Shown piece after piece: positions 36,008-60,762 of a DNA stretch of 64,000 bases (the stretch's first letter is position 1; every line of letters begins with the position of its first letter). The DNA is from Hallella colorans. GTDB taxonomy: Bacteria; Bacteroidota; Bacteroidia; Bacteroidales; Bacteroidaceae. The DNA is taken from positions 124,001-188,000 of the forward strand of contig NZ_QENY01000003.1 in NCBI RefSeq assembly GCF_003096815.1. Reading direction: 5' to 3'. Under the pieces are notes generated by a model, which was not told the DNA's origin, ran no database searches, and saw nothing but the letters and a program-made list of their open reading frames with translations. A program made the position numbers and the translations under genes.

Positions 36008-36736
36008 ATGAAATATGCTTTAGTAACAGGAGCCTCGCGAGGTATAGGACGTGCAGTGGCTTTGCGCTTAGCAAATGAGTATCCTGTCATAATCAATTAT
36101 CATTCTAATTCCGAAAGTGCTAATGAGGTAAAGGAACTAATAGAGGCGAACGGGGGTTATGCAGAGTTGCTACCTTTTGATGTTGCAGATTCACAATCTA
36201 TAGAAAATGCGATTGACCTGTGGGAACAAAGACATCCTGATGATTATATTTCTGTGTTAGTAAACAATGCAGGTATTCGTCGAGACAATGTTATGTTTAT
36301 GATGGCAAATGAGGAATGGCATGATGTCATCAATACGAATCTTAATGGCTTTTTCTATATCACAAGACGCCTATTGAAACATATGATGCCTCGTAAACGA
36401 GGTGGAAGAATTATAAACATGTCATCGCTTTCTGGTTTGAAAGGAATGGTAGGTCAGGTAAATTATAGTACTGCAAAAGCAGCGCTAATAGGAGCGACGA
36501 AAGCTTTAGCTCAAGAGGTAGCCCCTCGTAACATCACAGTGAATGCAGTGGCTCCAGGTTTCATACAAACAGATATGACTAAGGATTTGCCACAGGACGA
36601 ACTTAAAAAGTTAGTACCTGTAGGACGTTTTGGAAAACCAGAAGAAGTGGCAGCATTGGTAGGCTTCTTGGTTTCGGATGACGCAGCCTACATCACTGGT
36701 GAGGTAATCAGTATAAATGGTGGTCTTTATACATAA
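36008..36736 (+). CDS. 3-oxoacyl-ACP reductase, FabG-like (polyene cluster KR)
   Basis: The 242-residue short-chain dehydrogenase has the NADPH motif TGASRGIGRA near residue 7, NNAG near 85, the catalytic Ser in MSSLSG near 138, and YSTAK (Tyr/Lys) near 151. It ends with the FabG-like DAAYITGEVISINGG. It should reduce the 3-keto group in each elongation round. It is the first gene of the cluster and the ketosynthase follows after 49 bases. Aryl-polyene clusters carry a dedicated KR of this type, which is why I do not call it housekeeping FabG. Confidence 0.9.
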   Translation: MKYALVTGASRGIGRAVALRLANEYPVIINYHSNSESANEVKELIEANGGYAELLPFDVADSQSIENAIDLWEQRHPDDYISVLVNNAGIRRDNVMFMMANEEWHDVINTNLNGFFYITRRLLKHMMPRKRGGRIINMSSLSGLKGMVGQVNYSTAKAALIGATKALAQEVAPRNITVNAVAPGFIQTDMTKDLPQDELKKLVPVGRFGKPEEVAALVGFLVSDDAAYITGEVISINGGLYT

Positions 36737-36785
36737 TCGCTATTACATTCCAATCATTCATAATATAATTAAGGTATAATAAGTA

Positions 36786-38009
36786 ATGGAAAGAAGAGTC
36801 GTAATTACAGGTATGGGTATTTGGTCATGCCTTGGTACTGACCTAGAAACGGTCAAGAATTCATTATATAATGGAAAATCAGGTATAGGCGTACAGCCCG
36901 AACGTTTAACATATGGTTACCGTTCTGCGTTGACTGGCATTGTTGAGGAACCTGTCATAACAAAGAAGATGCTTGACCGTCATACACGCGCAGGAATGTC
37001 AGAAGAGGCAAAATATGCTTACATGTCTAGTCTGCAAGCATTTAATCAAGCTAAAATTTCTGATGAGTATTTGCTAAACAATGAAGTTGGATGTATTTTT
37101 GGCAATGATTCTTCTGCAAAACCTGTGATTGAAGCTTCGAAAATTATGGATGAGAAGCATGATTCTGCCATGTTGGGCTATGGTATTATCTTTCAGTCTA
37201 TGAATTCCACAGTTAATATGAATCTCAGTACAATTTTCCACCTTAGAGGAGTTAACTTTACTGTTAGTTCAGCTTGTGCAAGTGGAAGTCATTCCATTGG
37301 CCTAGGTTTTATGATGATAAAGCAAGGTTTACAAGATATTGTATTATGTGGGGGTGCTCAGGAAACCAATTATTATTCTATGGCTTCCTTTGACGCGCTC
37401 GGTGCGTTTTCTATTCGTATGGACGAGCCGACAAAAGCGAGTCGTCCTTTTGACCGTGACTGAGATGGTCTGATACCAAGCGGTGGTGCTGCCTCTTTGG
37501 TTTTGGAAGAGTATGAGCATGCTAAGGCTCGTGGTGCTAATATTCTTGCAGAAGTCGTTGGCTATGGTTTTTCAAGCAATGGTGGCGGTATCAGTCAGCC
37601 GTCTGATGATGGTAGTGTTATAGCCATGACTCGTGCGCTCAATATGGCAGGAATAAAGGAAGACGATATTGATTATATCAATGCTCATGCAACCAGCACT
37701 CATCAAGGCGACATGTATGAAGCGATAGCTCTCAACCGTATGTTCAAAGGAAAACACGCTCTGATTTCATCGACTAAAGGTATGACAGGACATGAATGTT
37801 GGATGGCAGGAGCCTCTGAGATTGTTTACAGCACTTTGATGCTGCAAAACAACTTTGTGGCTCCTAATGTCAACTTCGAAAATCCTGATGAATACTCGGA
37901 GAGATTGAACATTGCAACCAAGACTGTAGATAAAGAAATAAATACGGTGTTGAGTAACAGTTTTGGGTTCGGAGGCACAAACTCTGCATTGGTTATCAAA
38001 AGAATATAA
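36786..38009 (+). pseudogene. FabF-like 3-oxoacyl-ACP synthase with one in-frame TGA (KS1)
   Basis: Reading through, this is a 407-residue ketosynthase. The active-site Cys164 lies in SSACASGSHS, the two histidines in NAHATSTHQGD and STKGMTGHECWMAG, and the end is NSFGFGGTNSALV. Codon 226 (37461-37463) is TGA, in the context FDRD-stop-DGLIPSGGA, where KS enzymes have Arg (FDRDRDG). A single C-to-T change of CGA would cause it, and the frame is otherwise intact. Translation would give a 225-residue piece with the Cys but without the histidines. TGA ends other genes here, so recoding is unlikely. A sequencing error or a recent mutation fits best. Confidence 0.88.
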
Positions 38010-38030
38010 ATTACTTTTAAATAAATAATT

Positions 38031-38552
38031 ATGAAGCATATATTGTTTGTGATTGCTGCATGTCTGGTTTGTCTTAACGCTTTAGCAGGCAGCGACATCA
38101 AGGTAAAAAGTGGAAAATCTGTTGTTGTCAAGGAAAATGCAAACGCAGTAATAGTTTTCGATTTCTCAAATGCTCGTTGGGAACAAAAGGAGAGTTTCAA
38201 GGATTGGAGTGGAACTGATTACGAAAAACGAGTCAATGTGGCCTCAGAATGCTTTGTAAACTCTTTTAATGAGAACACCAAAGGGTTAAAATTGGTTACA
38301 AACAAAGATCTAGCCGAATACTCGATTATTTTTAAAGTGACAAATTTAGAAAAGCACCAAGCTTTTACAGGTATGTGGGGGCAAGGCAAGATTTCTGTAA
38401 CGGGAACCATTGATATTTTAAACATCAAAACCCAGGAACAAGTGTGTTCTATATTTATTGACGGATATGGCGCTTCGAAGGACTATAACGTCACTGATGG
38501 CATAGGTAAATGTTTCAAGGCGTTAGGAAAAGATATGACTAAGTTAAAATAA
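38031..38552 (+). CDS. Secreted protein of unknown function, paired member 1
   Basis: A 173-residue protein with a signal peptide (MKHILFVIAACLVCLNALAG). The mature part contains VVVKENANAVIVFDFSNARW, IIFKVTNLEK near residue 103, and GMWGQGKISVTGTIDI, which suggests beta strands. The end reads DGIGKCFKALGKDM. The next gene has a similar size, signal and end (YEDAAKKIASFILKCFK), so the two may be distant paralogues. I recognise no family. Its place between the KS and the methyltransferase suggests an envelope role in this pathway, but G+C is lower here than in the cluster core. Confidence 0.75.
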   Translation: MKHILFVIAACLVCLNALAGSDIKVKSGKSVVVKENANAVIVFDFSNARWEQKESFKDWSGTDYEKRVNVASECFVNSFNENTKGLKLVTNKDLAEYSIIFKVTNLEKHQAFTGMWGQGKISVTGTIDILNIKTQEQVCSIFIDGYGASKDYNVTDGIGKCFKALGKDMTKLK

Positions 38553-38575
38553 ATACAACAATATTACTAAGCAAA

Positions 38576-39103
38576 ATGAAAAAAATAGCATTAATTTTGA
38601 TGGCGATAATGGTCACGTTAACCACAGACGCACAGAAAATATTAGACGGCTCAATACCTTCTTTAAAAGGAGAAGGTAAAATTAATCTTAAAATTGATTT
38701 TTCAGAAACGAAAATCGACGATAAATCAATTGCAGATTGGTTAGAATACCGTCAAGCTACTCAGCCTAAATATGATGCCCAAAAAGAGTTGGAGAACGAG
38801 CTTAAACCTGTTGTTCAAGAGAAAATTTTAAAGAACTTGAATAACAAATTATCTAAAAAAGGAGCCTTTGTTACAATTAATACCAATGCAAAATATACTT
38901 TATCAGTAAAACCCATTAGTGTTTCTAAAAAAGGCGATAACACGAATGAATGCTACATATTGGACGAGGATGGCAATGCTCTTGTAAAATTTCAGATTTC
39001 TGGTTCTGGTGGTCATTGGGGGAGTATGAGCAATTTGTGGGGTGACGGCTATGAAGATGCCGCAAAAAAAATAGCTTCTTTTATATTAAAATGCTTTAAA
39101 TAA
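38576..39103 (+). CDS. Secreted protein of unknown function, paired member 2
   Basis: A 175-residue protein with a signal peptide (MKKIALILMAIMVTLTTDAQ). The mature region has a charged helix (YDAQKELENELKPVVQEKIL) and beta segments (YTLSVKPISVSKKGD; ALVKFQISGSGGHWG), then WGDGYEDAAKKIASF. It resembles the preceding protein in plan. The region is very AT-rich: I count 13 G+C in the 60 bases from 38821. The methyltransferase gene follows after 6 bases, so it is in the operon. The function is unknown. Confidence 0.72.
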   Translation: MKKIALILMAIMVTLTTDAQKILDGSIPSLKGEGKINLKIDFSETKIDDKSIADWLEYRQATQPKYDAQKELENELKPVVQEKILKNLNNKLSKKGAFVTINTNAKYTLSVKPISVSKKGDNTNECYILDEDGNALVKFQISGSGGHWGSMSNLWGDGYEDAAKKIASFILKCFK

Positions 39104-39109
39104 GATAGT

Positions 39110-40204
39110 ATGAATCTTTTTAAATCTGAAAGCGATAGATATACAAAAGAGCAACTTTCCGCTCGTGAAGCTCAACGCCAGGCTGAGTTTATCGCTTGGG
39201 GACCTGTCATTTTTCAGGTTTCCCGACTTATGGTAAAATGGGGAATATTGGATGAACTGCGTGATAGTACTGATGGACTTACTTTAATAGAGTTGCAACA
39301 GAAAACAAAATTGTCGGAGTATGTTCTTAAGATATTATTGGAGGCATCACTCAGTGCTGGTACTGTTTTAATAGACAAGAAAACAGACAAGTACTATATT
39401 TCCAAGACTGGATGGTTCTTGCTCAACGATCCTGCCACACGAGTCAACATCGACTTTAATCATGATGTGAATTATCGTGGAATGTTCTATCTTGACGAAG
39501 CTCTGAAAGAAGGTAAGCCTGCAGGCTTGAAAACACTTGGTGAATGGCCTACTATTTATGAGGGACTTTCAAAACTCGCTCCACAGGTACAGCAGAGTTG
39601 GTTTGGTTTTGATCATTTCTATAGCGATCATTCTTTTGATACAGCTTTGAATATTGTTTTTGGTAAAAAAACTAAGCACTTGATGGATGTCGGTGGTAAT
39701 ACTGGACGTTTTGCGCTTCGTTGTGTAAACTATGATAAAGATGTAAACGTTACAATCGTAGATCTTCCTGGACAAATCGGCATGATGAAGAAAAATGTAG
39801 AGGGGCTAACGGGTGCAGACAGAATAGAAGGCTACCCAACCAATATTCTTGAAGTAGAAAATGAGTTGCCGACAGGAAAATGGGATGCCATTTGGATGAG
39901 CCAGTTCTTGGACTGTTTTTCCGAAGAAGAAATATATAGCATTCTTGCCCGTACTGCAAAGGTGATGAACGAGAATACCACCTTATATATAATGGAAACC
40001 TTCTGGGATCGCCAAAAATATGAACCAGCATCGCTCTGCTTGACTATGACAAGTGTTTATTTTACGGTAATGGCAAATGGAAATAGCAAGATGTATCATT
40101 CTGATGACATGATAAAGCAAATTGAACGTGCCGGATTGAAAGTTGTGGCTACTCATGATGGTATAGGGCAAGGACATACAATATTAGAAGTAAAACTTAA
40201 ATAA
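39110..40204 (+). CDS. SAM-dependent O-methyltransferase (polyene cluster)
   Basis: The 364-residue protein has an N-terminal winged-helix dimerisation domain (QVSRLMVKWGILDELRD; LIELQQKTKLSEYVLKILLE) and a Rossmann methyltransferase domain. The SAM motif is LMDVGGNTGRFALR near residue 186, followed by VTIVDLPGQIGMM and WMSQFLDCFSEEE. The plan is that of family 2 O-methyltransferases. In aryl-polyene and flexirubin clusters such an enzyme methylates the aromatic head group, and that is the likely role here. Confidence 0.85.
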   Translation: MNLFKSESDRYTKEQLSAREAQRQAEFIAWGPVIFQVSRLMVKWGILDELRDSTDGLTLIELQQKTKLSEYVLKILLEASLSAGTVLIDKKTDKYYISKTGWFLLNDPATRVNIDFNHDVNYRGMFYLDEALKEGKPAGLKTLGEWPTIYEGLSKLAPQVQQSWFGFDHFYSDHSFDTALNIVFGKKTKHLMDVGGNTGRFALRCVNYDKDVNVTIVDLPGQIGMMKKNVEGLTGADRIEGYPTNILEVENELPTGKWDAIWMSQFLDCFSEEEIYSILARTAKVMNENTTLYIMETFWDRQKYEPASLCLTMTSVYFTVMANGNSKMYHSDDMIKQIERAGLKVVATHDGIGQGHTILEVKLK

Positions 40205-40218
40205 TTAGATAAATAAAA

Positions 40219-40461
40219 ATGGAAAGAAAAGTAATTGAAGAGAAAGTAAGAAATTTCCTCATTGAGGATTTGGAAATTGAGGAAGAGAAGATTGCACCAG
40301 AAGCAAAGTTAAAGGACGATCTTGGTATTGATAGTCTTGACTTCGTTGATATTGTTGTTATCGTGGAGAAGAACTTTGGTTTCAAGATTAAGCCTGAGGA
40401 AATGCAGGGGGTTGTAACCCTTAGCCAGTTCTGCGACTATATTGAGAGCAAGGTAGGCTAA
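40219..40461 (+). CDS. Acyl carrier protein 1
   Basis: An 80-residue acidic carrier protein. LGIDSLDFVDIVV places the phosphopantetheine site at Ser39. It lies between the methyltransferase and an acyltransferase. The cluster contains two more carrier proteins. No phosphopantetheinyl transferase is in the cluster, so a chromosomal one must act on it. Confidence 0.93.
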   Translation: MERKVIEEKVRNFLIEDLEIEEEKIAPEAKLKDDLGIDSLDFVDIVVIVEKNFGFKIKPEEMQGVVTLSQFCDYIESKVG

Positions 40462-41331: not shown

Positions 41332-41348
41332 TGTTATTTTAAAGAAAT

Positions 41349-41819
41349 ATGATAGAATTTGATGCAGAGAATCCAACGGAACAAGATCTTCGTCAGATAG
41401 ATATTCATGAGTTGTTGCCTCAGCAAGAACCTTTCGTCATGATAGGTACGCTGACGCATTTCGACAGAACGCTTACCGTGACGGAGACAGAGGTGAAGGC
41501 GAATAATATCTTCGTGGACAATGGACACTTCACCGCTTCAGGATTGATGGAGAATATAGCACAGACCTGCGCAGCTCGCATTGGCTATGTCAATAAGTAC
41601 ATCTTGAAGAAAGGTATTCAGTTGGGATTTATCGGAGCCGTTCGCAACTTTGAGGTGGTGGAACTACCTCAGGTAGGCTCTTTATTGACCACTCGTGTGG
41701 ACGTGAAAGAAGAGGTATTCGGTATGACTTTGGCAGAGGCCACCATCGAATGTGCAGGTAAGACATTTGTGACGACGGAGATGAAAATCGCAGTCAAGGA
41801 AATGGAGAACAATGAGTGA
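41349..41819 (+). CDS. Hotdog-fold 3-hydroxyacyl-ACP dehydratase (DH1)
   Basis: The 156-residue protein has the FabZ-like start ELLPQQEPFVMIGTL near residue 22 and the active-site helix NGHFTASGLMENIAQ near 55-72. His and Glu stand where the FabZ dyad is. Chains of this aryl-polyene type dehydrate the 3-hydroxyacyl intermediate in each round, leaving conjugated double bonds. A second dehydratase-like protein is encoded at 47391-47789. The thioesterase gene follows after 9 bases. Confidence 0.85.
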   Translation: MIEFDAENPTEQDLRQIDIHELLPQQEPFVMIGTLTHFDRTLTVTETEVKANNIFVDNGHFTASGLMENIAQTCAARIGYVNKYILKKGIQLGFIGAVRNFEVVELPQVGSLLTTRVDVKEEVFGMTLAEATIECAGKTFVTTEMKIAVKEMENNE

Positions 41820-41828
41820 CAAGAAAGC

Positions 41829-42257
41829 ATGAATGAACTAAAGGTGTCCAAGATATTTAACATTCGTTTTAGCGAGGTAGATTCCATGAATGTAGTATGG
41901 CATGGTTCATATCCACTCTATTTCGAAGATGCCCGAGAGGCATTTGGCAAGAAATATGGATTGGAATATATGAGTTTCTTCGACCACGGATATTTCGCAC
42001 CGTTGGTGGAACTTACTTTCCATTACAAGAAGCCCATCAAGTATGGGATGTGTCCTCGTATCGACATAATCTATCGGCCAACAGAAGCGGCAAAGATAGT
42101 CTTCGACTATGAAATCCATGACCCTAAGGATGAGAGTCTGATTGCAATGGGACATTCCGTACAGGTGTTTATGGACTTGAATTACCAACTGGTATGGGAT
42201 AATCCTCCTTTCTATCAAGAATGGAAGAAACATTGGGGAGTGATAAGTGAAGAGTGA
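41829..42257 (+). CDS. 4HBT-type acyl thioesterase
   Basis: A 142-residue hotdog protein of the YbgC/4-hydroxybenzoyl-CoA thioesterase type. The motif FSEVDSMNVVWHGSYPLYFE near residue 14 has the family aspartate and the HxxY/N group, followed by EDAREAF. It probably hydrolyses or edits acyl-ACP intermediates. The gene for the next ketosynthase starts close to its stop. Confidence 0.87.
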   Translation: MNELKVSKIFNIRFSEVDSMNVVWHGSYPLYFEDAREAFGKKYGLEYMSFFDHGYFAPLVELTFHYKKPIKYGMCPRIDIIYRPTEAAKIVFDYEIHDPKDESLIAMGHSVQVFMDLNYQLVWDNPPFYQEWKKHWGVISEE

Positions 42258-42273
42258 AGAATTCAGTGGTTGT

Positions 42274-43944
42274 ATGGCATACGTTTTAGCAGATAATATC
42301 ATTTCACCATTAGGTGAGACTTCTGAGGAGAATTACTTGGCGGTCAAGGCTGGCAAGTCGGGCATCCATGCCTATGCCAAGGGCAGTCATGGTATTCCAG
42401 ACGGCTTTGTTGCCTCATTGATGTCACTTGATTTTGAGGAACTGGTCATTAATTCTGCAAAGAAGGCTATTGGAGCTTCTCACGTAGACGTAGCTCACGA
42501 AAAGGTGGTATTGATTCTAAGTTCTACCAAGGGGGCCATTGAAAGATTGGGAAAGGTGGATGACGAGGACATCGAATTAGGTACGTTAGCAGAACGTATA
42601 GCGCAGCAATTAGGCATCTTGACTAAGCCATTCGTGGTTTGCAATGCCTGTATTTCTGGCCTGTCTGCCTTGATACTTGCCTCCCGCTTGTTGTCGGCAG
42701 AGAAATATGACTATGCTGTCGTCTGTGGTTGTGACTGTCCTGATCGTTTTATCGTATCTGGTTTCCAGTCGCTCAAGGCTTTGTCTACAGAACCATGTCG
42801 TCCTTTTGACATAGAACGCTTTGGGCTGAACCTTGGAGAAGCTGTGGCAACTATAGTTCTTGCCAAGAATGCCCCAAGACTGGACGGTGAGTGTGTATGG
42901 CAAATCGGTCATGGTTTTGTTAGAAACGACGCTTTTCACATCAGTGCACCTTCCAAAACCAGCGAGGGACTATATCAAGCTTTATCGCAAACCATGTTAG
43001 GAGTAGATAAAAGTTGGTTGGCATTTGTGAATGCGCATGGTACAGCCACATTGTTTAATGACCAAATGGAATCCATCGCTATCCAGCGTGCTGGTTTGTC
43101 GGAAATTCCTACAGATGCTTTGAAAGGTTACTTCGGACATACTTTGGGAGCTGCAGGAGTATTGGAAACCATCTTGAGTATGAAGGCTGTAGATGATCAT
43201 ACCATAATCGGTACGCTCGGATATGAGGAGTTAGGCGTATCGGGCAAGGTGAATGTTTCTGCGGAAAATCGACCTACCGACAAGAAAACATTCGTCAAGA
43301 TGTTGTCAGGATTTGGAGGATGTAATGCCACTATGTTGGCGAGTAAGAGCTCTGCTACATTTAGGGAAGAAAAACCTTCCATAAAGGCTTTTGTCATAAC
43401 ACATCGGGTGTCTATCTCCACCAAGGGTGTCATTGTGGATGGAACGCCACTTTCTATAGAACAAGGTGGTAATGGACTACTGACAAACATCTATAAGCAG
43501 AAGATTGGTGAATATCCTAAGTATTATAAGATGGATGGGCTCTGTCGATTAGGCTTTGTGGCTTCTGAGTTACTTCTGCAAGCAGAGGGAAATGTGAGAT
43601 TTAAGGAATGCTATGATAGAGCTATTGTGCTCTTCAATCGTTCTTCTTCCATATTTTCTGATAAAAAGTTTTTGGAGTCAATACAGAACAAAGAAAACTA
43701 TTTTCCAAGTCCATCGGTGTTTGTCTATACGTTGCCAAATATCGTGACTGGTGAGATTGCCATCCGTAACCACTATCATGGCGAGACCTCTTTTTATATT
43801 TTGCCATCGAAGGACGAAAGGCAGATGAATGAAGTCTTGGAGACGATGTTCATGGACACTCAAAGCAAAAGTGTACTGACTGGATGGATAGACTATGAGG
43901 ATGGGGAACACTTTGAGGCAGACCTTATGCTCATAGAAATTTAA
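42274..43944 (+). CDS. Ketosynthase with degenerate C-terminal KS-like domain (KS2)
   Basis: The ATG at 42274 gives 556 residues; a GTG at 42247 overlapping the thioesterase gene would give 565. The first 380 residues form a ketosynthase: CNACISGLSALI (active Cys), NAHGTATLFND and GYFGHTLGAAG (two His). About 180 more residues follow. They contain PSPSVFVYTLPNIVTGEIAI, which resembles the ketoacyl-synt_2 (PF13723) domain, without a catalytic Cys. In proteobacterial aryl-polyene clusters a comparable domain is a separate small protein. It may serve as a chain-length or heterodimer partner. A carrier protein follows. Confidence 0.85.
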   Translation: MAYVLADNIISPLGETSEENYLAVKAGKSGIHAYAKGSHGIPDGFVASLMSLDFEELVINSAKKAIGASHVDVAHEKVVLILSSTKGAIERLGKVDDEDIELGTLAERIAQQLGILTKPFVVCNACISGLSALILASRLLSAEKYDYAVVCGCDCPDRFIVSGFQSLKALSTEPCRPFDIERFGLNLGEAVATIVLAKNAPRLDGECVWQIGHGFVRNDAFHISAPSKTSEGLYQALSQTMLGVDKSWLAFVNAHGTATLFNDQMESIAIQRAGLSEIPTDALKGYFGHTLGAAGVLETILSMKAVDDHTIIGTLGYEELGVSGKVNVSAENRPTDKKTFVKMLSGFGGCNATMLASKSSATFREEKPSIKAFVITHRVSISTKGVIVDGTPLSIEQGGNGLLTNIYKQKIGEYPKYYKMDGLCRLGFVASELLLQAEGNVRFKECYDRAIVLFNRSSSIFSDKKFLESIQNKENYFPSPSVFVYTLPNIVTGEIAIRNHYHGETSFYILPSKDERQMNEVLETMFMDTQSKSVLTGWIDYEDGEHFEADLMLIEI

Positions 43945-43988
43945 AAAACAGACATAGAAAATCATTTGATAAAATAAAGAATAAGACA

Positions 43989-44246
43989 ATGGTAGAATTG
44001 ATAAAAGAATTGAAGGAAGAAATCATTGAGGTATTGAATCTTGAGGATATGACAGTAGAAGACATTGACGAGAACGATGCTCTCTTTGGTGAAGGCTTGG
44101 GATTGGACTCTATTGATGCTTTGGAGTTGATTGTCATGCTGGAAAAAAAATACGGCATTAAGTTGGCTAATCCTGCTGCTGGTAAGGAAATTTTTAAGAG
44201 TGTGGCAACCATCGCTGACTATGTAAGCAAGAATAGAAAGAAATAA
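43989..44246 (+). CDS. Acyl carrier protein 2
   Basis: An 85-residue acidic protein with the phosphopantetheine site Ser41 in LGLDSIDALELIV. It is encoded between KS2 and KS3, the usual place for the carrier that holds the growing polyene. Confidence 0.93.
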   Translation: MVELIKELKEEIIEVLNLEDMTVEDIDENDALFGEGLGLDSIDALELIVMLEKKYGIKLANPAAGKEIFKSVATIADYVSKNRKK

Positions 44247-46037: not shown

Positions 46038-46378
46038 TAGTATTGGCCGTCGTCCAAAGTGCACTTTTGGCTATAGGACAGGTGTTTTTGAAGTTCGCTT
46101 TGCAGAAGATGCACCCTTTCGGATTGACGAAGGATTTCTGGTGGCATTTGCTCATCAACTGGCAGTTCGCTTGTAGTGGTGCTTTTTTTGGAGCCAGCTC
46201 TGTGCTTTGGATGTATATCGTAAAGCATTATCCGCTCAGTGTAGCTTATCCGATGATTAGTTTGAGCTATGTATTTGGCATGTTGGCGGCAATAGCGTTT
46301 TTCCATGAGTCAGTGTCGGCAGTAAAGTGGATTGGTATTGGCTTTATTATGATAGGATGTTGTTTAATAGCAAAATAA
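46025..46378 (+). CDS. Small EamA/ArnE-like membrane protein
   Basis: A 117-residue protein with four predicted membrane helices, near residues 3-18, 38-60, 70-90 and 96-115. SVLWMYIVKHYPLSVAYPM and the acidic FFHESVSAVKWIGIGFIMIG resemble ArnE/ArnF and other small EamA transporters. ArnE/F flips undecaprenyl-linked sugar. Here it may flip a lipid- or sugar-linked polyene precursor, which would fit the glycosyltransferase in the cluster. It overlaps KS3 by 13 bases. Confidence 0.8.
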   Translation: MWRVIVLAVVQSALLAIGQVFLKFALQKMHPFGLTKDFWWHLLINWQFACSGAFFGASSVLWMYIVKHYPLSVAYPMISLSYVFGMLAAIAFFHESVSAVKWIGIGFIMIGCCLIAK

Positions 46379-52341: not shown

Positions 52342-53205
52342 ATGAAGAGAAAATTATATACTTTGTGGATGTTGCTTTACTTAGGAGTCTTGACACTGAC
52401 GGCGCAAGAGAAAAATGGCAAGGTCAACATTTGGGAAGGAATTGATTGCCATAGGATAGTAGAGATGATCCCTTACTTAGCTCCTGGGCACAACAATGTT
52501 GCTGTAGTGGTCTGTCCTGGTGGTAGTTATTTTTGGCATGATATGGAAGCAGAGGGCAAAGCGGTAGGTGAATGGTTGCAGAAATATGGTATTTCTGCTT
52601 TTGTGCTTCATTATCGTACAGCAGGCTTCTGGGCTTATTTTACACACTATCGCTATATTTTTCGGGGAAATCGCTATCCTGATGCTTTGAATGACTTGCA
52701 TCAAGCTATGCGATATATCAAGGAACATTCACAACGATATGGTATCAATCCCGACAGTCTTGGTGCCATGGGCTTTTCGGCAGGTGGCCATCTTGTGATG
52801 TCGGCTGGCGAATTATTGCAACCGAAAGAGCGTCCAGCTTTTATCGCCCCTATCTATCCTGTCGTGACGATGGTAGACAAGTGTGTGCATAAGCGTTCAC
52901 GACGTGCTTTATTAGGGGATAGAAGAAAGAATAATCGACAATTGCGTGATTCTCTTTCCCTTGAGTTGCATGTTCCGGATGATTGTCCTCCTGTATTTTT
53001 GGTTAATTGCCAGGACGACCCTATCGTGAAATGCCATAATTCAGAACTTCTTGACTCTGCGCTTACGGTTCATCATGTCGATCACCGTTATATCCAATAT
53101 AAAACTGGTGGTCATGGTTTTGGTGCTACCGACTATAAAGGTACAGCAGAATGCCGACAATGGAAGGATGAGTTCCTGATTTGGCTGAGGGGATTAACTC
53201 GGTAA
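52342..53205 (+). CDS. Secreted alpha/beta hydrolase (acetyl-xylan esterase/BD-FAE-like)
   Basis: A 287-residue protein with a signal peptide (MKRKLYTLWMLLYLGVLTLT). The oxyanion region is VVCPGGSYF near 53. The nucleophile elbow is MGFSAGGH with Ser near residue 146, the acid is probably in CQDDPIV near 232, and the base is His in GGHGFG near 262. It is exported, so it may trim acyl or acetyl groups from the anchored product or from a sugar. The link to the pathway is by position. Confidence 0.8.
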   Translation: MKRKLYTLWMLLYLGVLTLTAQEKNGKVNIWEGIDCHRIVEMIPYLAPGHNNVAVVVCPGGSYFWHDMEAEGKAVGEWLQKYGISAFVLHYRTAGFWAYFTHYRYIFRGNRYPDALNDLHQAMRYIKEHSQRYGINPDSLGAMGFSAGGHLVMSAGELLQPKERPAFIAPIYPVVTMVDKCVHKRSRRALLGDRRKNNRQLRDSLSLELHVPDDCPPVFLVNCQDDPIVKCHNSELLDSALTVHHVDHRYIQYKTGGHGFGATDYKGTAECRQWKDEFLIWLRGLTR

Positions 53206-53265
53206 GCGATATTTATAATCAAATGTATAAAATAATAAGGTATAGATTTTAATCAAAAGAAGCTA

Positions 53266-54390
53266 ATGAAATCAACAATATTCGATGATATTCGTCCCTA
53301 TAATGCAGAGGAGATACCTGCAGCTATGCAGCGTATAGCTTATAGTTCTTCCTTCCCCATTTTGGCGGCATACGTCTACCCAGAGGAACCTTTGGATAAG
53401 GTGCGTAAGCGAATAGCCAACTATAAAACCGTGAAGGAATTCCAAACGGAGACGATGCGTATGGTCAACAAGCGTGTAATAGAGAATAGCATTACCGATT
53501 TTTCTTGTTCAGGATTGGATAAATTAGATCCTCACAAGCAATATCTTTATGTATCTAATCACCGAGACATCATGCTCGACTCCAGTCTTCTCCAGTATTT
53601 CCTCGTGCAGAATGGTTTTGATACAACGGAGATAACCTTCGGGGCAAACTTGATGATGAATCCTTTGATCATTGACATAGGCAAGAGTAATAAGATGTTT
53701 AAGGTGGAACGTCCAGGGGGGAGCATTAAGGAGTTCTATCGTTGTTCGAAGCACCTTTCTGATTATATTCGCCATGTCATTACAGAGAAAAAACAGTCGG
53801 TTTGGATTGCACAACGCAATGGAAGAACCAAGGATGGAAATGACGCTACAGACCAAGGTATCATCAAGATGTTTTGTATGTCTTGCTTGGATGACAAAAT
53901 CAAAGCGATAGACCAACTTCATATAGTGCCAGTGTCTATCTCTTATGAATGGGAATCTTGCGACATCCTCAAGACCTTAGAACTCTATGAGTCCCAGTTT
54001 TCCAAATATACTAAAAAGCCAGGAGAGGACTTGAATAGCATTCTTACGGGCATTGTGCAATCTAAGGGACGGGTACATATTGAACTTTGCGACCCTATCT
54101 CCCATGCCGAATTGGCTAAGTTTGAGAACTTGACCAATAACGAGTATCACAGGGCGGTAGCTCAGCTCTTGGATAGTAGAATCAATACGGCTTATCGTCT
54201 CTATCCGAACAACTATATTGCTTACGACTTGCGTTATGGTACAACGAAATATCAAGATTGCTATACGCAGGAGCAAAAAGAACTGTTCTTAAAGCGTGTC
54301 AAGGAGTTGGAACGATATGACACTTGTGACATCGGGAAACTGATGGATATTTTCTTGGGCATTTATTCAAATCCAATAAACAATAAGTAA
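53266..54390 (+). CDS. PlsC-like acyltransferase
   Basis: The 374-residue protein shows YVSNHRDIMLDSSLL near residue 95 as its active-site segment and VWIAQRNGRTKDGNDATDQG near 185 in place of the FPEG block. Its sequence is like a Bacteroidota acyltransferase family that differs from LpxL and the GT-linked domain. It lies one base before the exporter gene. This is the third acyltransferase type in the cluster after the LpxL-like and GT-fused ones, and the exporter carries a fourth. Confidence 0.8.
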   Translation: MKSTIFDDIRPYNAEEIPAAMQRIAYSSSFPILAAYVYPEEPLDKVRKRIANYKTVKEFQTETMRMVNKRVIENSITDFSCSGLDKLDPHKQYLYVSNHRDIMLDSSLLQYFLVQNGFDTTEITFGANLMMNPLIIDIGKSNKMFKVERPGGSIKEFYRCSKHLSDYIRHVITEKKQSVWIAQRNGRTKDGNDATDQGIIKMFCMSCLDDKIKAIDQLHIVPVSISYEWESCDILKTLELYESQFSKYTKKPGEDLNSILTGIVQSKGRVHIELCDPISHAELAKFENLTNNEYHRAVAQLLDSRINTAYRLYPNNYIAYDLRYGTTKYQDCYTQEQKELFLKRVKELERYDTCDIGKLMDIFLGIYSNPINNK

Positions 54391-54391
54391 A

Positions 54392-57300: not shown

Positions 57301-57979
57301 CGAACGAAATTCCAAGTCTTCTATTATGCGATTTCATAAAGGTGCATTCTATATAGCAGAACAATTGGGATTGGATATTGTGCCTGTGTTCTTACATGGT
57401 TTGAATGATGTTTTACCAAGAAATAGCTTTGCGGTGTATGGTGGAAATATTACAGTAAGTATTCGTGAGCGCATTTTATTGAATGATGCTCGATGGGGAG
57501 ATGGATATGTACAGCGGACAAAAAATATACATAGGTATTATGTTGAGGAGTATGTTAAAATGGCTTCATTGATAGAAACCTCTCATTATTATCATAATTT
57601 ACTGCTTGACCGCTATCGATATAAAGGAACGGAAATTTATCGTGCTGTACAGAACAATCTAAAGAAGTATAGCAACTTTTCTCAGTGGATAGATGGAGTT
57701 GTAACATCTTCCAATGTTCTTGTCTTCAATCATAGCTTTGGAGAATTCGCACTTCTCTACGCCTTAGTGCATAAGAATATTATAGTATCAGTATATGAAC
57801 CTGATGAGGAAAAATCAACATTGTTGTTCTATTGTTCAGAAGGATTAGTTCCTAATTTAAAAATACATAAGACAATAGATGTTGCAGAAATTAAAGCGGA
57901 TGAATGTCAGGTATTTATGTTTGATATGCACGACAAGAGTTTAGAGGGAATTAGTAATATTAAAGTTATAAGCGTATGA
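54392..57979 (+). CDS. RND/MMPL exporter fused to an acyltransferase and a C-terminal domain
   Basis: A 1195-residue three-part protein. Residues 1 to about 810 form an MMPL-type RND transporter with two sets of membrane helices and large periplasmic loops (helices near 18-38, 265-425, 445-465 and 665-815). Residues 860-1065 are a PlsC-type acyltransferase: ISNHQSMLDA (His901) and VFPEGERNSKSS near 967. The last 130 residues (VLVFNHSFGEFALLYALVHK, VSVYEPDEEK) look like a Rossmann fold related to methyltransferases but without a clear SAM motif. The exporter should move the lipid-linked product to the outer membrane. G+C falls near base 56820, at the joint between transporter and acyltransferase. 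The next gene overlaps by 4 bases. Confidence 0.86.
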   Translation: MPEFILKLYDYMKMHRMTCFFSFVVITLLLVMSVLRLGYKEDIADFLPIDSEHHNALKVYQDISGANKVFAIFQYRDTTKTDPDAMVNSIDAFVEKLEKTDTAHILTNVMSQIDVEKMTEVTDFVYKNIPYFLTDADYARMDSVMTQPDYVAHQLKQDKQMLMFPAGGILSDNIQRDPLNIFTPVVKKLQRSDTGLKHEMYNGYIFSPDMQKAIVMMDSPYGASETENNARLTNMLKTCADIVTSGQKNIGIHIIGAPVIAVTNASQIKTDSILAVIISVTLILALLLFSFRSFHNLLLIAFSIAWGWLFAMGGLALFHDKVSVIVIGISSVILGIAVNYPLHFIAHLSHTPNKRKALREIVMPLLVGNVTTVGAFLALVPLQSVALRDLGLFSSFLLIGTIIFVLIYLPHLSKETKEVKHTFLDKLSNVSLENKPVFVVVVIVLTLVFGYFSLQTQFDANMGHINYMTDEQKADMAYFQRTMVQSGEYQKVYAISSDSTMDGALDKSLHLQSCLKKLQAQGKVHDYNTCSQFIVSYKEQQRRLLLWQDFVQRNKEKIKSSLQVGMRLEGFADDSFDEFYALLDKDYQPQNFSYFKPLTQSLFVSNLSMDSANRRYNVVNILSVKDNNVKEVEDVLDSHDSYSFDVVSMNSAIANHLSDDFNYIGFACGFIVFFFLWLSFGSIELAVLSFVPMAVSWLWILGIMALFGMQFNIVNIILATFIFGQGDDYTIFMTEGAMYEYAYRRKMLASYKHSIIISALIMFIGIGTLIVARHPALHSLAEITIAGMFSVVLMAYIFPPLVFKFLVRHNDEYRKRPVSMIPLLVMGLSSFVFFCQLTTVYVRGFLTLCLLKPTASKRRHLHRYVQRLYQYNLTHIPTVRYRVEKTSDEDFEQPAMIISNHQSMLDAAVFMALSSKIVLISNRHPSNNWVVKRIYQWLGFVTLSEDMNKNLSVLKERVKQGYSLVVFPEGERNSKSSIMRFHKGAFYIAEQLGLDIVPVFLHGLNDVLPRNSFAVYGGNITVSIRERILLNDARWGDGYVQRTKNIHRYYVEEYVKMASLIETSHYYHNLLLDRYRYKGTEIYRAVQNNLKKYSNFSQWIDGVVTSSNVLVFNHSFGEFALLYALVHKNIIVSVYEPDEEKSTLLFYCSEGLVPNLKIHKTIDVAEIKADECQVFMFDMHDKSLEGISNIKVISV

Positions 57980-59223
57980 AGAACATGTTTATATTGTCAT
58001 TTATATTTTTCTTGCTTTCTACCTCGGTTAGAGGTCAGACTCCAAATGAACAAATGCCATTAATAGGCGAAGATCGGTCTATCACATTCAAATACAGAAG
58101 TCCTGAAGAAAGAAAGGTGACAATAGAAGGATCATTTACGGAAGCTAAAGATATGACATTCAAAGACAGTGCATGGATTTTACATATTGATTCTCTTCCA
58201 TCGGAGATGTATACATACCGTTTCTATGATGGCAATAAAAAGTTTTTGGATCCATGCAATCCAAATGTGGTACGTGATATTACTGACACCATAAATTATT
58301 TTATTATTGATGGAGTCCCAGGCTCTTATTATAAAAAGCAAAATGTGCCACATGGCAAAGTTTATCAACTTTGGTATCCTTCATCATTTAACGAGAATAT
58401 GAAGCAACGTCGCTTGTCTGTCTATCTACCTGCAGACTATGAAATGAATATTAAGAAGAAGTATCCAGTATTGTACCTTTTACATGGTACTGGTGGTGAT
58501 GAAATGGCGTGGCTTGATATGGGCCGTTTGGCTCAGATAATGGATAATATGATTGCACAAGGCAAGACAAAACCTATGATTGTAATTATGCCTAATGGAA
58601 TCGTAGATTTGGATGCAGCACCTGGACAAAGTCCTTATATGCAAGGAAAAGCGAGTCATTCTAATGTATCTTCATGGATGGGTCGAACAGAAAAAGCATT
58701 TCCCGAAGAAGTGGTAACTTTCGTCGAAAAGACGTTTAGGATAAAACCAGACAAACAACATAGAGCTATCGCTGGCCTTTCAATGGGAGGTCTACATGCT
58801 ATAGCCATTTCTGCTAACAATCCAATGATGTTTGATTATGTAGGTTTGTTCTCTCCCCAATCAATAAACCCATTGACTGACAAAAATATTATGCACATAC
58901 AAAAAGTAAATGCTCAAGTTGAGAAGATTAAAGACAAATTTCCAAGTTGGTTGAAGCAAAAATATGAGAAGGGAAAAGATGTTGTTGAAGATGTAGATAT
59001 TTATCAAAATTTAGACAACAAACTAAAAAATCAGTTTAAAACTCCTCCTCGACTTTATTATATTGCAATTGGGAGGAAAGACCCTTTAAAACCTTTCTTG
59101 GATAAATTTCGCAAACGCCTTTCTAAACAAGGAGCTACATCTCTCTATAAAGAAACAGATGGAGCACATAGTTGGGAAAATTGGCGGAAATATTTATTGG
59201 ATTTTTTACCTCGTATTTTTTAA
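57976..59223 (+). CDS. Secreted esterase (PF00756 type) with N-terminal E-set domain
   Basis: The 415-residue protein has a signal peptide (MKNMFILSFIFFLLSTSVRG), then a beta-sandwich like CBM48/E-set (ITFKYRSPEERKVTIEGSF) to about residue 115. The esterase-D domain follows: YLPADYEMNIKKKYPVLYLL, the nucleophile elbow AGLSMGGLHA with Ser near 271, and His in DGAHSWENW near 400. Enzymes of this plan cut ferulate, acetate or siderophore esters. In this cluster it may act on the aryl polyene ester, but that is not shown. It overlaps the exporter gene by ATGA. Confidence 0.83.
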   Translation: MKNMFILSFIFFLLSTSVRGQTPNEQMPLIGEDRSITFKYRSPEERKVTIEGSFTEAKDMTFKDSAWILHIDSLPSEMYTYRFYDGNKKFLDPCNPNVVRDITDTINYFIIDGVPGSYYKKQNVPHGKVYQLWYPSSFNENMKQRRLSVYLPADYEMNIKKKYPVLYLLHGTGGDEMAWLDMGRLAQIMDNMIAQGKTKPMIVIMPNGIVDLDAAPGQSPYMQGKASHSNVSSWMGRTEKAFPEEVVTFVEKTFRIKPDKQHRAIAGLSMGGLHAIAISANNPMMFDYVGLFSPQSINPLTDKNIMHIQKVNAQVEKIKDKFPSWLKQKYEKGKDVVEDVDIYQNLDNKLKNQFKTPPRLYYIAIGRKDPLKPFLDKFRKRLSKQGATSLYKETDGAHSWENWRKYLLDFLPRIF

Positions 59224-59240
59224 TTATTATTATTTTGACA

Positions 59241-59477
59241 ATGAAAGAAATTATTCGACAGACACTGGAGAATTTGTTGCCTCTAGTAGATTTAGACTCT
59301 GATTTTTTGTTTCAAGAGCTTGATTCTCTTGGAATAACAACAATTTTGATGACGCTTTCTGATATGTATGGAATAGAACTTAACCATTCGGATGTCACTC
59401 CAAAGAATTTCAAGACGCTTGATAGTCTTGTTGAGATGGTACAAAAAAAACTAGCAGGAAATGACGATAGAGGATAA
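59241..59477 (+). CDS. Acyl carrier protein 3 (starter carrier)
   Basis: A 78-residue carrier protein with Ser29 in QELDSLGITTILM as the phosphopantetheine site. It overlaps the AMP-ligase gene by 17 bases. In comparable clusters the adjacent ligase loads the aromatic starter on such a carrier. The in-frame upstream extension to 59172 lies inside the esterase gene and is not used. Confidence 0.85.
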   Translation: MKEIIRQTLENLLPLVDLDSDFLFQELDSLGITTILMTLSDMYGIELNHSDVTPKNFKTLDSLVEMVQKKLAGNDDRG

Positions 59478-60762
59478 ATTGCGTTCACATGCAGCGTATA
59501 GCCCAGAGAAGATAGCTTTAAAATGCGAGGGAAAGTCATATTCGTATTCAGCATTATTTAAAGCCGCTTGCCGTAAATCAACAGAATTGGGTGATGTTAC
59601 ACGAAAAATGGTACCAATCGTGGCAACTTCTACTTTTGATTTTGTTACATCTTATTTCGCAATCCATCTTGCAAATGCTGTAGCTGTGCCCTTAGATAAA
59701 GAATTACCATCCTGTAAAAGAAAGCAACTTATAGATTTTTTTTCTGGGAAGATTGCTCCAGAGGGTGTGGCAGATATTCTCTATACAACAGGTACAACAG
59801 GAAAATCCAAAGCAGTCATGATAAGTCATGAAACCATTATGGCTGATGCGGAAAATTTGGTTGAGGCACAAGAGTATGATGGTGATTTAACATTTATCAT
59901 CAATGGACCTTTGAATCATATTGGTAGTTTGTCGAAAATCTATCCCGTTATTTACACAGGAGGAACAATCCAGTTGATTGATGGAATGAAGGATATTAAC
60001 CGTTTCTTTGAGGTAATAGATGATGCGAATACCAAGGTGGCAACCTTCTTGGTTCCAGCTTGCATACGTATGCTCTTGACCTTTGCAAAGGATAAATTGA
60101 CATCGTATGCTAATAAGATAGATTTCATAGAAACGGGAGCAGCTCCCATGCCATTAGAAGATATGCGTCTGTTGTGTCAAGTTTTGCCTCAAACCCGACT
60201 TTACAACACCTATGCATCTACAGAAACAGGCATTATTTCTACTTTTAATTATAATGATGGCGAATGTTTGGCAGGTTGTTTGGGAATGCCAATGAAACGA
60301 TCCTCATTTTTCATTACAGACGACGGTGTCGTTGGGTGTAAGGGAAAAACACTTATGATGGGATATTGGAACGATACGGAAACAACAGCAAAAGTACTAA
60401 AAGATGGTACCATTATTACAGCAGATTTAGGGTCTATAGATATGAAAGGTAGGTTACGTCTGCATGGACGAAGTGACGATGTTATAAACGTTGGAGGTTA
60501 TAAGATTGCACCTACAGAGATTGAAGACATTGCATTGGCTTTTTCTGGCGTGAAAGATTGCATTTGTATCGAGGCTCCACATCCTGTTGTTGGAAAAGTA
60601 TTGAAACTGTTGATTGTACCAGATGTCGATTATAATCGAAAGAATCTGGTGAATTACCTCAAATCTAAATTAGAATCTCATAAAGTTCCTGTATTATATG
60701 GTGAGATTGCTGAAGTGCGGCGTACATTTAATGGAAAAATCGATCGCAAGAGTTATCGATAA
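59461..60762 (+). CDS. AMP-dependent acyl/aryl-ACP ligase
   Basis: A 433-residue adenylate-forming enzyme. The P-loop is YTTGTTGKSKAVMISH near residue 103, followed by YNTYASTETG near 247, the hinge HGRSDDVINVGGYKI near 335, and NGKIDRKSYR with the catalytic lysine at the end. It should activate an aryl or fatty acid and pass it to carrier protein 3. It is shorter than typical CoA ligases (500-550 residues), as is usual for ACP ligases in these clusters. It is the last gene, and the IS4-type element begins about 10 bases after its stop. Confidence 0.87.
   Translation: MTIEDKLRSHAAYSPEKIALKCEGKSYSYSALFKAACRKSTELGDVTRKMVPIVATSTFDFVTSYFAIHLANAVAVPLDKELPSCKRKQLIDFFSGKIAPEGVADILYTTGTTGKSKAVMISHETIMADAENLVEAQEYDGDLTFIINGPLNHIGSLSKIYPVIYTGGTIQLIDGMKDINRFFEVIDDANTKVATFLVPACIRMLLTFAKDKLTSYANKIDFIETGAAPMPLEDMRLLCQVLPQTRLYNTYASTETGIISTFNYNDGECLAGCLGMPMKRSSFFITDDGVVGCKGKTLMMGYWNDTETTAKVLKDGTIITADLGSIDMKGRLRLHGRSDDVINVGGYKIAPTEIEDIALAFSGVKDCICIEAPHPVVGKVLKLLIVPDVDYNRKNLVNYLKSKLESHKVPVLYGEIAEVRRTFNGKIDRKSYR

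What the first reader, a model, noticed from the sequence alone, without database searches (positions are those of the whole stretch)
36008..60762. Aryl-polyene/flexirubin-type cluster with an unusual gene set
Seen: KR, three KS, two hotdog DH, thioesterase, three ACPs, O-methyltransferase, LpxL-like and PlsC-like acyltransferases, GT2-acyltransferase, LolA, EamA-like protein, RND exporter and AMP ligase in one direction. This matches the known aryl-polyene logic. Not part of the core known set: two CrtI-like flavoproteins, two secreted hydrolases, two unknown secreted proteins and a triple-domain exporter. I infer a modified, lipid-anchored polyene that could differ from described pigments.
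Basis: partly seen in the sequence, partly recalled or inferred. Interest (0 to 1): 0.8.

Follow-up and report, generated by a model that had tools for sequence, protein, structure and literature searches.

The report
Prevotella flexirubin-type cluster, swapped starter module
A Prevotella bacterium carries a common type of yellow aryl-polyene pigment gene cluster; most of its "odd" genes are normal for its relatives, but the two enzymes that normally start the pigment from tyrosine are missing and a different carrier-and-ligase pair is there instead, here preceded by a relative of enzymes that cut plant phenolic esters.

Summary
The cluster is real: 25 genes, one strand, 36008-60762, flanked by insertion-sequence genes. 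It is a flexirubin/aryl-polyene cluster (FlxB, FlxJ, LolA2 models over cut-off) of a Prevotella near P. histicola. The class call is right; "unusual gene set" mostly is not: CrtI-like flavoproteins occur in 14 of 15 well-covered relatives, the GT2-acyltransferase in 15, the BD-FAE hydrolase in 14, the exporter in 12. The two small secreted proteins and the second hydrolase are sporadic. (1) The first ketosynthase gene has an in-frame TGA; none of the 70 other near-full-length orthologues listed has a stop. It is recent or a sequencing error. (2) The characterised flexirubin starters, FlxA (tyrosine ammonia-lyase) and FlxY (4-coumarate ligase), were not found in the genome; an ACP-AMP-ligase pair is present. 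Among 33 FlxJ-bearing genomes of 149, 24 carry that ligase, 8 FlxY, 1 neither, 0 both. The hydrolase before the pair is a CE1-CBM48 ferulic-acid-esterase relative. Most likely product: a ring-methylated aryl-polyene acid moved to the outer membrane, started from a phenolic acid not made by a tyrosine lyase. Boldest reading: a diet-derived hydroxycinnamate start.

The parts
34110..35957 (+). left flank: two tandem IS30-type transposase genes (HTH_38, rve); 300-nt stretches 87% alike
   Evidence: Pfam; direct repeat; IS30 name recalled
36008..36736 (+). ketoreductase FlxB / ApeQ-like
   Evidence: NF053542 397 bits, cut-off 340; 45% to ApeQ
36786..38009 (+). ketosynthase KS1, ApeR-like, interrupted by in-frame TGA 37461-37463
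38031..38552 (+). small secreted protein, unknown, sporadic in relatives
   Evidence: no Pfam/NCBIfam match; matched in 10 of 80 named loci
38576..39103 (+). small secreted protein, unknown, sporadic in relatives
   Evidence: no Pfam match at cut-off; matched in 8 of 80 named loci
39110..40204 (+). FlxJ-family methyltransferase, ApeB-like
   Evidence: NF053543 617 bits, cut-off 560; 44% to ApeB
40219..40461 (+). ACP1 (ApeF-like)
   Evidence: PP-binding; 46% to ApeF over 52 aa
40462..41331 (+). LpxL-like acyltransferase
   Evidence: PF03279; matches ApeJ residues 318-550
41349..41819 (+). hotdog dehydratase DH1 (FabZ-like, weak)
   Evidence: NCBIfam FabZ E 1e-4, far under cut-off; no Pfam match
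41829..42257 (+). thioesterase (4HBT_2), ApeK-like
42247..43944 (+). KS2, ketosynthase with unidentified C-terminal part
   Evidence: (best PDB match 6qsp_A)
43989..44246 (+). ACP2 (ApeE-like)
   Evidence: 50% to ApeE
44259..46037 (+). KS3, ketosynthase fused to a Ketoacyl-synt_2 (chain-length-factor-like) half
46025..46378 (+). EamA/ArnE-like small membrane protein
   Evidence: ArnE 57 bits, cut-off 92
46381..47004 (+). LolA2 (flexirubin-type LolA); ORF open from 46327
   Evidence: NF053544 236 bits, cut-off 125
46979..47407 (+). LolB2-like protein, weak; ORF open from 46955
   Evidence: NF053540 22.6 bits, cut-off 60
47391..47789 (+). hotdog dehydratase DH2 (ApeI-like)
   Evidence: PF07977
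47783..49279 (+). GT2 glycosyltransferase-acyltransferase (N-terminal half ApeJ-like)
49307..50809 (+). CrtI/CrtD/CRTISO-like flavoprotein 1
   Evidence: all carotenoid models under cut-off
50802..52295 (+). CrtI/CrtD/CRTISO-like flavoprotein 2
   Evidence: all carotenoid models under cut-off
52342..53205 (+). secreted alpha/beta hydrolase, BD-FAE family
   Evidence: PF20434; PDB relatives
53266..54390 (+). PlsC-like acyltransferase
   Evidence: PF01553
54392..57979 (+). MMPL exporter fused to an acyltransferase and an unidentified C-terminal part
57976..59223 (+). secreted CE1-CBM48 ferulic-acid-esterase relative (Est) with Ser, Asp and His motifs
   Evidence: PF00756; 6rzn E 8e-70; alignment
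59241..59477 (+). ACP3, carrier next to the ligase
   Evidence: PP-binding 27.5 bits, cut-off 20.8; adjacent to the ligase in 24 of 25 loci
59461..60762 (+). AMP-forming ligase, MenE-like in length and nearest PDB match, not FlxY
   Evidence: PF00501; orthologues in 26 of 149 genomes
60841..63612 (.). right flank: DUF4372 piece (+), Mutator-family transposase piece (-), DUF772/DDE transposase (+)
   Evidence: Pfam

Best explanation
This is a flexirubin-type aryl-polyene cluster of a Prevotella, of a sub-type without the tyrosine start. SHOWN by sequence: homologues of the aryl-polyene core (KR, ApeR-like KS, ApeO-like KS, chain-length-factor-like half, dehydratases, thioesterase, carriers, ring methyltransferase, GT2-acyltransferase, MMPL exporter, LolA2); no FlxA, no FlxY and only one KASIII found in the whole genome; an ACP3-AMP-ligase pair in the cluster. 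INFERRED: the ligase adenylates a phenolic acid and loads it on ACP3; the KS/KR/DH set extends it with malonate units to a conjugated polyene; FlxJ methylates the ring; the CrtI-like flavoproteins isomerise or further desaturate the chain; acyltransferases link the acid to a lipid or glycolipid; MMPL, LolA2 and LolB2 carry it to the outer membrane. The product is thus an aryl-polyene lipid rather than a dialkylresorcinol ester. In this assembly KS1 is cut by a nonsense codon, so this strain may start chains poorly or not at all, unless the codon is an error, is read through, or another KS stands in.
For: NCBIfam FlxB 397/340 and FlxJ 617/560, LolA2 236/125. 13 of 18 E. coli CFT073 Ape proteins match a window protein at E 1e-3 in a 25-protein set. 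Same gene set and largely the same order in relatives. The genome's only aromatic ammonia-lyase is HutH in a hut run (HutH model 606 over 539, FlxA model 349 under 700); one PF08541 match; no FlxY relative at E 1e-50, the query of that search scoring 688 over 520 on the FlxY model. In 33 FlxJ-bearing genomes of 149 (the window's own counted): ligase 24, FlxY 8, neither 1, both 0 (Fisher P 6e-7 with no correction for kinship). 11 of 11 FlxA genomes have FlxY. Of 26 ligase genomes 24 also have FlxJ; the other two are 50% and 81% complete. FlxA and FlxY activities were shown with purified Chitinophaga pinensis enzymes (PMC3992019, parts 1 and 2 of 5 of the text read).
Against: ApeH, the E. coli ligase, does not match the window ligase in BLASTP at E 1e-3, so 'aryl acid' rests on context. 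On the FlxJ tree the swap needs 4-5 changes, of which 2-3 are forced by well-supported branches, and the independent-pairs sign test has too few pairs to reach significance. No UbiC-type chorismate lyase, so the source of the acid is unknown. KS1 is broken as sequenced, and its E. coli-type counterpart ApeR is needed for initiation in vitro (PMC8253772, passages). That DarB belongs to PF08541 is recalled, not tested; DarA was not searched. FlxJ alone does not prove a full cluster (several class-wide FlxJ loci show little else). No product, expression or pigment data.
Confidence: 0.75

Rival explanations
1. Diet- or host-derived starter: the secreted CE1-CBM48 esterase (and perhaps the BD-FAE hydrolase) frees ferulate or p-coumarate from plant or dietary esters, the acid is taken up, and the AMP ligase loads it on ACP3. 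This supplies the same kind of molecule that FlxA makes from tyrosine, so the rest of the pathway need not change.
For: Est matches CBM48-bearing ferulic acid esterases over residues 28-293 (6rzn E 8e-70); Ser, Asp and His motifs are in place in the six aligned members. Est lies directly before ACP3-ligase in 5 of 25 ligase loci, 18-23 bases between the matches, and 1.3 kb before the ligase in a sixth, G011, where no ACP3 was found. It is the genome's only match at E 1e-30. The closest Est relatives (296 bits or more) occur in 9 of 149 genomes, all 9 with the ligase (P 4e-8 if genomes were independent). FlxA and the ligase never co-occur: 0 of 26.
Against: Est is near the pair in only 6 of 25 loci; in three further ligase genomes its relatives sit elsewhere, with no cluster gene matched nearby. 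Within the 33 FlxJ genomes the Est-ligase link is marginal (P 0.053), and the 296-bit line was drawn after seeing the list. Other CE1 relatives at lower scores are widespread: 71 of 149 genomes have a match at E 1e-30, some FlxY-type (G024, G090, G107). BD-FAE also occurs with FlxA (G076, G092). CE1/PF00756 includes transferases (recalled). No uptake gene was identified.
Confidence: 0.2
2. Canonical flexirubin: a tyrosine-derived aryl-polyene acid esterified with a dialkylresorcinol.
For: FlxB, FlxJ and LolA2 equivalog models over cut-off; flexirubin-like clusters are widespread in the phylum: 268 BGCs from 252 strains in one cloud (PMC9248904, passages).
Against: FlxA and FlxY not found in the genome; one KASIII only; no FlxA or FlxY remnant in the window at E 0.01 or below.
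Confidence: 0.07
3. Decaying or silent cluster: the KS1 nonsense codon and insertion sequences on both sides, one ending 50 bases before the first gene, mean that no pigment is made.
For: In-frame TGA in KS1, not seen in the 70 other near-full-length orthologues of the capped listing nor in the 76 named loci with a KS1 match (70 of them near full length); IS30-type genes end at 35957, KR starts at 36008; ApeR needed for initiation in vitro (PMC8253772, passages).
Against: The other 24 genes have no inner stop. KS1 is otherwise conserved: dN 0.067 to G016, second lowest of 11 genes, and its half behind the stop differs from G044, G035 and G082 as much as the intact G016 copy does, so any loss is recent. 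A draft error is possible. In E. coli the apeR deletion still made the primary APE lipid (PMC8253772, passages).
Confidence: 0.2
4. A chemically new pigment because of the extra genes that the first reader listed (CrtI-like pair, hydrolases, secreted proteins, triple-domain exporter).
For: Those genes are present; the two small secreted proteins and Est are sporadic in relatives.
Against: The rest are common: CrtI-like in 14 of 15, BD-FAE in 14 of 15, MMPL in 12 of 15 relatives; CrtI-like genes also sit in 3 of 9 FlxJ loci of the class-wide sample, one of these from another genus of the window's own family.
Confidence: 0.1

Closest known systems
Flexirubin clusters of Chitinophaga pinensis (flxA-flxY) and Flavobacterium johnsoniae
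   Same: FlxB, FlxJ and LolA2 models over cut-off; FAS-like core, exporter and LolA/LolB as described in the papers (PMC3992019 parts 1-2; PMC11885536 passages)
   Different: No FlxA (tyrosine ammonia-lyase), no FlxY (4-coumarate-CoA ligase), no second KASIII as DarB candidate; ACP3-AMP-ligase pair instead. The two reference clusters themselves were not at hand for a gene-by-gene comparison
E. coli CFT073 aryl polyene cluster (apeA-R)
   Same: BLASTP matches for 13 of 18: ApeR, Q, O, M, L, K, J, I, F, E, D, C (weak), B
   Different: No match for ApeH, ApeP, ApeN, ApeG, ApeA at E 1e-3; the chain-length-factor-like half is fused to a KS; extra CrtI-like, BD-FAE, PlsC, Est, ACP3
Flexirubin-type clusters of Bacteroidales (named loci such as Prevotella histicola, Alloprevotella sp. 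Lung230, P. lacticifex, Heminiphilus faecis)
   Same: Core genes found in most of 80 named loci, e.g. KS1 76, LpxL 77, KS2 77, KS3 77, as far as the stretches reach; order read only for P. histicola (L054), where it is that of the window without the second small protein
   Different: FlxA in 16 of 80 named loci, in 13 of the 46 that have KR with over 2 kb before it, not in the window

Membership tests
Flexirubin biosynthesis cluster | FlxB ketoreductase | tested here: met
   397 bits, cut-off 340
Flexirubin biosynthesis cluster | FlxJ-family methyltransferase | tested here: met
   617 bits, cut-off 560
Flexirubin biosynthesis cluster | LolA2 / LolB2 transport pair | tested here: inconclusive
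   LolA2 236 over 125; LolB2 22.6 under 60
Flexirubin biosynthesis cluster | FlxA tyrosine ammonia-lyase | tested here: not met
   only HutH found in the genome; FlxA model 349 under 700
Flexirubin biosynthesis cluster | FlxY 4-coumarate-CoA ligase | tested here: not met
   no relative of a 688-bit FlxY at E 1e-50 in the genome
Flexirubin biosynthesis cluster | DarA/DarB dialkylresorcinol half | tested here: inconclusive
   one PF08541 KASIII in the genome, so no spare for DarB; family placement recalled; DarA not searched
Flexirubin biosynthesis cluster | yellow-orange pigment with alkali colour shift | not testable with these tools
   no strain
Aryl polyene (ape) cluster | ApeO/ApeC-like KS and chain-length half, ApeR-like KS, KR, DH, ACPs | tested here: met
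   ApeC match weak (E 5e-4), DH1 not matched by ApeP, KS1 (ApeR-like) interrupted as sequenced
Aryl polyene (ape) cluster | methyltransferase, thioesterase, GT2-acyltransferase, MMPL exporter, LolA | tested here: met
Aryl polyene (ape) cluster | ApeH-type ligase and 4-hydroxybenzoate supply (UbiC) | tested here: not met
   no BLASTP match of ApeH at E 1e-3; no PF04345 at E 1; another AMP ligase is present
CE1-CBM48 ferulic acid esterase (Est) | sequence relatives of that description, catalytic triad motifs | tested here: met
   activity itself not testable

The most novel reading that the evidence does not exclude
Bacteroidales flexirubin-type clusters exist in two exchangeable forms: a self-sufficient one (tyrosine lyase FlxA plus FlxY) and a dependent one (ACP3 plus AMP ligase, sometimes with its own secreted feruloyl esterase) that builds its pigment on hydroxycinnamic acids cut from dietary plant material, so that the pigment and its antioxidant protection depend on the host's diet.
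Probability: 0.2. Interest if true: 0.75.

Novelty: new variant of a known kind. Interest (0 to 1): 0.45.

Why it matters
Aryl-polyene clusters are common in mouth and gut bacteria, Prevotella included, and a 2021 survey says that no functional role had been shown for an aryl polyene of any human oral strain (PMC8549736, passages). A clean exchange of the starter module says where the chemistry should differ and gives a feeding experiment: labelled tyrosine against labelled p-coumarate or ferulate. If the acid comes from food, an outer-membrane antioxidant of common commensals would depend on diet. The KS1 nonsense codon warns against taking this very strain for the experiment without resequencing.

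Tried and rejected
A starter-making gene beside relocated ACP3-ligase pairs: none recurred; the neighbours in two genomes (G032, G051) look like a carbamoyl-phosphate synthase (named by eye). UbiC-type chorismate lyase in the genome: none; other routes to phenolic acids were not searched. BD-FAE as the specific replacement for FlxA: rejected, it also occurs with FlxA. Est as an obligatory part of the module: rejected, near the pair in 6 of 25. KS1 TGA as a lineage trait: rejected. KS1 as an old pseudogene: not supported. Searches of the paper library for flexirubin/aryl-polyene clusters in Prevotella or Bacteroidetes, for tyrosine ammonia-lyase, for hydroxycinnamic starters and for phytoene-desaturase-like genes showed, in the titles and abstracts listed, nothing that describes the swap; most of those papers were not opened and the library holds open-licence papers only. 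PMC2649909 (passages) reports phytoene-desaturase-like enzymes in other FAS-II-like clusters, so such pairings are not new.


Full report
What is there. The window lies in a 2.94 Mb, 61-contig genome whose nearest named relative at this locus is Prevotella histicola (86% identity in the methyltransferase; records of the window's own genome or one very near it may be left out of that list). From 36008 to 60762 there are 25 genes on the + strand with gaps of -26 to +60 bases (which mends two start positions that were three bases off), so probably one transcript. On the left two IS30-type genes end 50 bases before the first gene; on the right lie three transposase genes or pieces.

Identity of the genes. 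NCBIfam gives FlxB (397 bits, cut-off 340) and FlxJ (617, cut-off 560) and LolA2 (236, cut-off 125), all named for flexirubin biosynthesis; LolB2 stays under its cut-off (22.6, 60). The 18 E. coli CFT073 aryl-polyene proteins (DNA) were compared by BLASTP with 25 window proteins. Thirteen match at E 1e-3: ApeQ 45% (KR), ApeB 44% (methyltransferase), ApeR 35% (KS1), ApeO 33% (KS3) and 30% (part of KS2), ApeE 50% (ACP2), ApeF 46% (ACP1, 52 aa), ApeJ 33% (GT2 half; its other half matches the LpxL-like protein), and more weakly ApeK, ApeL, ApeM, ApeI, ApeD, ApeC. Five do not: ApeA, ApeG, ApeH, ApeN, ApeP. I gave the E. coli genes their ape letters by order, from memory and from PMC8253772 (passages); the record does not carry them.

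The first ketosynthase is broken as sequenced. KS1 runs 36786-38009 with a TGA at 37461-37463, between the half with the active-site cysteine and the half with the two histidines (read from the translation; motif roles recalled). The listing (249 genomes of the genus, own counted; listing capped) holds, by my count, 71 near-full-length orthologues of 68% identity or more; only the window's has a stop. In one search KS1 matched 76 of 80 named loci (70 over 380 aa or more), none with a stop in the best match. The 20 relatives whose alignment covers the site have a sense codon there, so intact copies exist. KS1 is otherwise conserved: dN 0.067 to G016, second lowest of 11 genes, with synonymous sites saturated. 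Its half behind the stop differs from G044 and G035 about twice as much as the first half does, but so does the intact G016 copy (0.162 and 0.188 for the window, 0.165 and 0.176 for G016), so there is no sign of decay. The lesion is recent or an error of the draft.

The 'unusual' genes are mostly usual. I fetched the locus from 21 relatives and compared all window proteins by tblastn. I set aside six in which the stretch or contig ends early or the cluster is rearranged or split (G144, G123, G051, G142, G143, G135). In the remaining 15: CrtI-like at least one in 14 (two in 11, none in G019), BD-FAE 14, GT2-acyltransferase 15, LpxL-like 15, EamA-like 14, LolB2-like 13, MMPL 12 (in G076, G020 and G038 the MMPL hit lies on the acyltransferase part of the GT2 gene, by its position), PlsC-like 10, Est 1, the two small secreted proteins 2 and 4. 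Of nine further FlxJ loci from a class-wide sample (one of them, G376, from another genus of the window's own family), three (G336, G483, G376) have CrtI-like genes in a recognisable cluster, all three with FlxA; the other six show only part of a cluster or little beyond the methyltransferase in the stretch held.

What is really different. The tyrosine ammonia-lyase FlxA and the 4-coumarate-CoA ligase FlxY start the pathway in Chitinophaga pinensis, shown with purified enzymes (PMC3992019, parts 1 and 2 of 5 of the text). The window's genome has one aromatic ammonia-lyase, in a run hutI-hutH-hutU-ftcD, scoring 606 on HutH (cut-off 539) and 349 on FlxA (cut-off 700). It has one KASIII C-terminal domain at E 0.001, no chorismate lyase PF04345 at E 1, and no relative of FlxY at E 1e-50. 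Instead, 59241-60762 encodes a small carrier (ACP3) overlapping an AMP ligase whose only PDB match at E 1e-25 is a succinylbenzoate-CoA ligase.

The swap. All four searches used the same 149 genomes, the window's own among them. FlxJ at 500 bits or more: 33 genomes (30 over the curated cut-off, three under it at 504-521 bits). Ligase orthologues: 27 genomes at E 1e-40, of which I dropped one with 31% identity (G036), leaving 26. FlxA over cut-off: 10, plus one split over two contigs (G135), 11. FlxY relatives: 13, the weakest 461 bits; the query, from G024, scores 688 on the FlxY model (cut-off 520); the other 12 were not scored on that model. Of the 33, 24 have the ligase, 8 FlxY, 1 neither (G020), none both; all 11 FlxA genomes have FlxY; no ligase genome has FlxA or FlxY; FlxY without FlxA occurs in G024 and G107 (and the listings). 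Fisher P is 6e-7 if genomes were independent, which they are not. On a tree of the 33 FlxJ proteins the states need 4-5 changes, 2-3 forced by well-supported branches; G076 (FlxA type) is sister to the window and G016 (ligase type) with 99/98 support. Only three independent pairs on supported branches are available, two of them with FlxY going the other way and one without difference, so no significance can be had from them. KS1 puts G076 further away (73% identity, against 85% for G044), so the cluster looks like a mosaic. Among 80 named loci FlxA is found in 16, and in 13 of the 46 that have the ketoreductase with over 2 kb before it. Only two named stretches reach a ligase (L101, L133), and neither holds a ketoreductase, so they say nothing about FlxA there.

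The esterase. I looked at the neighbours of the ligase in 25 of the 26 genomes (G021 was not fetched). ACP3 lies directly before the ligase in 24 of 25 (not found in G011). At least three of 13 core genes give a match within 12 kb in 18 of 25, though acyltransferase parts cross-match; of the other seven, four (G007, G018, G043, G052) are near a contig end or on a short contig. Est lies 18-23 bases before ACP3 in 5 of 25 (window, G001, G007, G043, G114) and 1.3 kb before the ligase in G011. Est matches CBM48-CE1 ferulic acid esterases over residues 28-293 (6rzn E 8e-70), and the six aligned members keep G[LM]SxGG, G[KR]xD and G[GA]H[ST]W motifs (motif roles recalled). It is the only match in the window's genome at E 1e-30, while 71 of 149 genomes have some match at that level; the nine genomes with relatives of 296 bits or more are all ligase genomes. 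In three of them (G030, G032, G051) the Est relatives lie away from cluster genes, and inside the 33 FlxJ genomes the link is marginal (P 0.053). It could instead be a periplasmic acyl transferase acting on the polyene ester: Ag85-type enzymes share PF00756 (recalled). I therefore give the diet-derived starter 0.2.

Mechanism, step by step. Shown: gene content, order, conservation, no FlxA, FlxY or second KASIII found. Inferred from families: ligase loads a phenolic acid on ACP3; KS/KR/DH/ACP extend it; FlxJ methylates the ring (a methionine-derived ring methyl was shown for flexirubin, PMC3992019); thioesterase and acyltransferases release and attach the acid; MMPL, LolA2 and LolB2 export it, as suggested for flexirubin (PMC11885536, passages). 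The CrtI-like pair may isomerise or desaturate the polyene; no test was made. [quoted passage not shown] coli leaves the primary APE lipid, so a broken KS1 need not abolish the pigment but may.

Known or new. Aryl-polyene and flexirubin-like clusters are well known in Bacteroidota and in oral Prevotella (PMC9248904, PMC8549736, PMC6469967, PMC12940132; passages). I saw no description of the starter swap in the listings, which cover open-licence papers only. I rate it a new variant of a known kind.

Noticed in passing
window 37461-37463: In-frame TGA in the first ketosynthase gene, not seen in any other orthologue listed.
   Followed up: yes
window 34110-35957 and 60841-63612: The cluster is bracketed by transposase genes; the left pair is a tandem IS30-type duplication (300-nt stretches 87% alike) ending 50 bases before the first cluster gene, the place where FlxA sits in FlxA-type relatives.
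   Followed up: partly
listing, for example G285:C3, G210:C4, G186:C26: Many genomes of the genus carry a second ketosynthase group, 52-60% identical to KS1, apart from the KS1 orthologues; perhaps a second polyene or lipid cluster.
   Followed up: no
L248, L249, L250: In three genomes the Est relative lies beside a gene for a secreted protein of about 240 aa with a shared stretch (DVVxLKNGSVIKGFYxELYP) of unknown role, apart from the pigment cluster.
   Followed up: no
G020 region (L144, L145): The one FlxJ genome with neither FlxA/FlxY nor the ligase has, just after its cluster, ORFs that look like a prephenate dehydratase / DAHP synthase / prephenate dehydrogenase run (read by eye). Its contig also ends before the ketoreductase.
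   Followed up: no
window 22000: G+C is 0.45-0.54 up to about 22 kb and 0.36-0.45 from there on, cluster included; the step is not at the cluster's edge.
   Followed up: no
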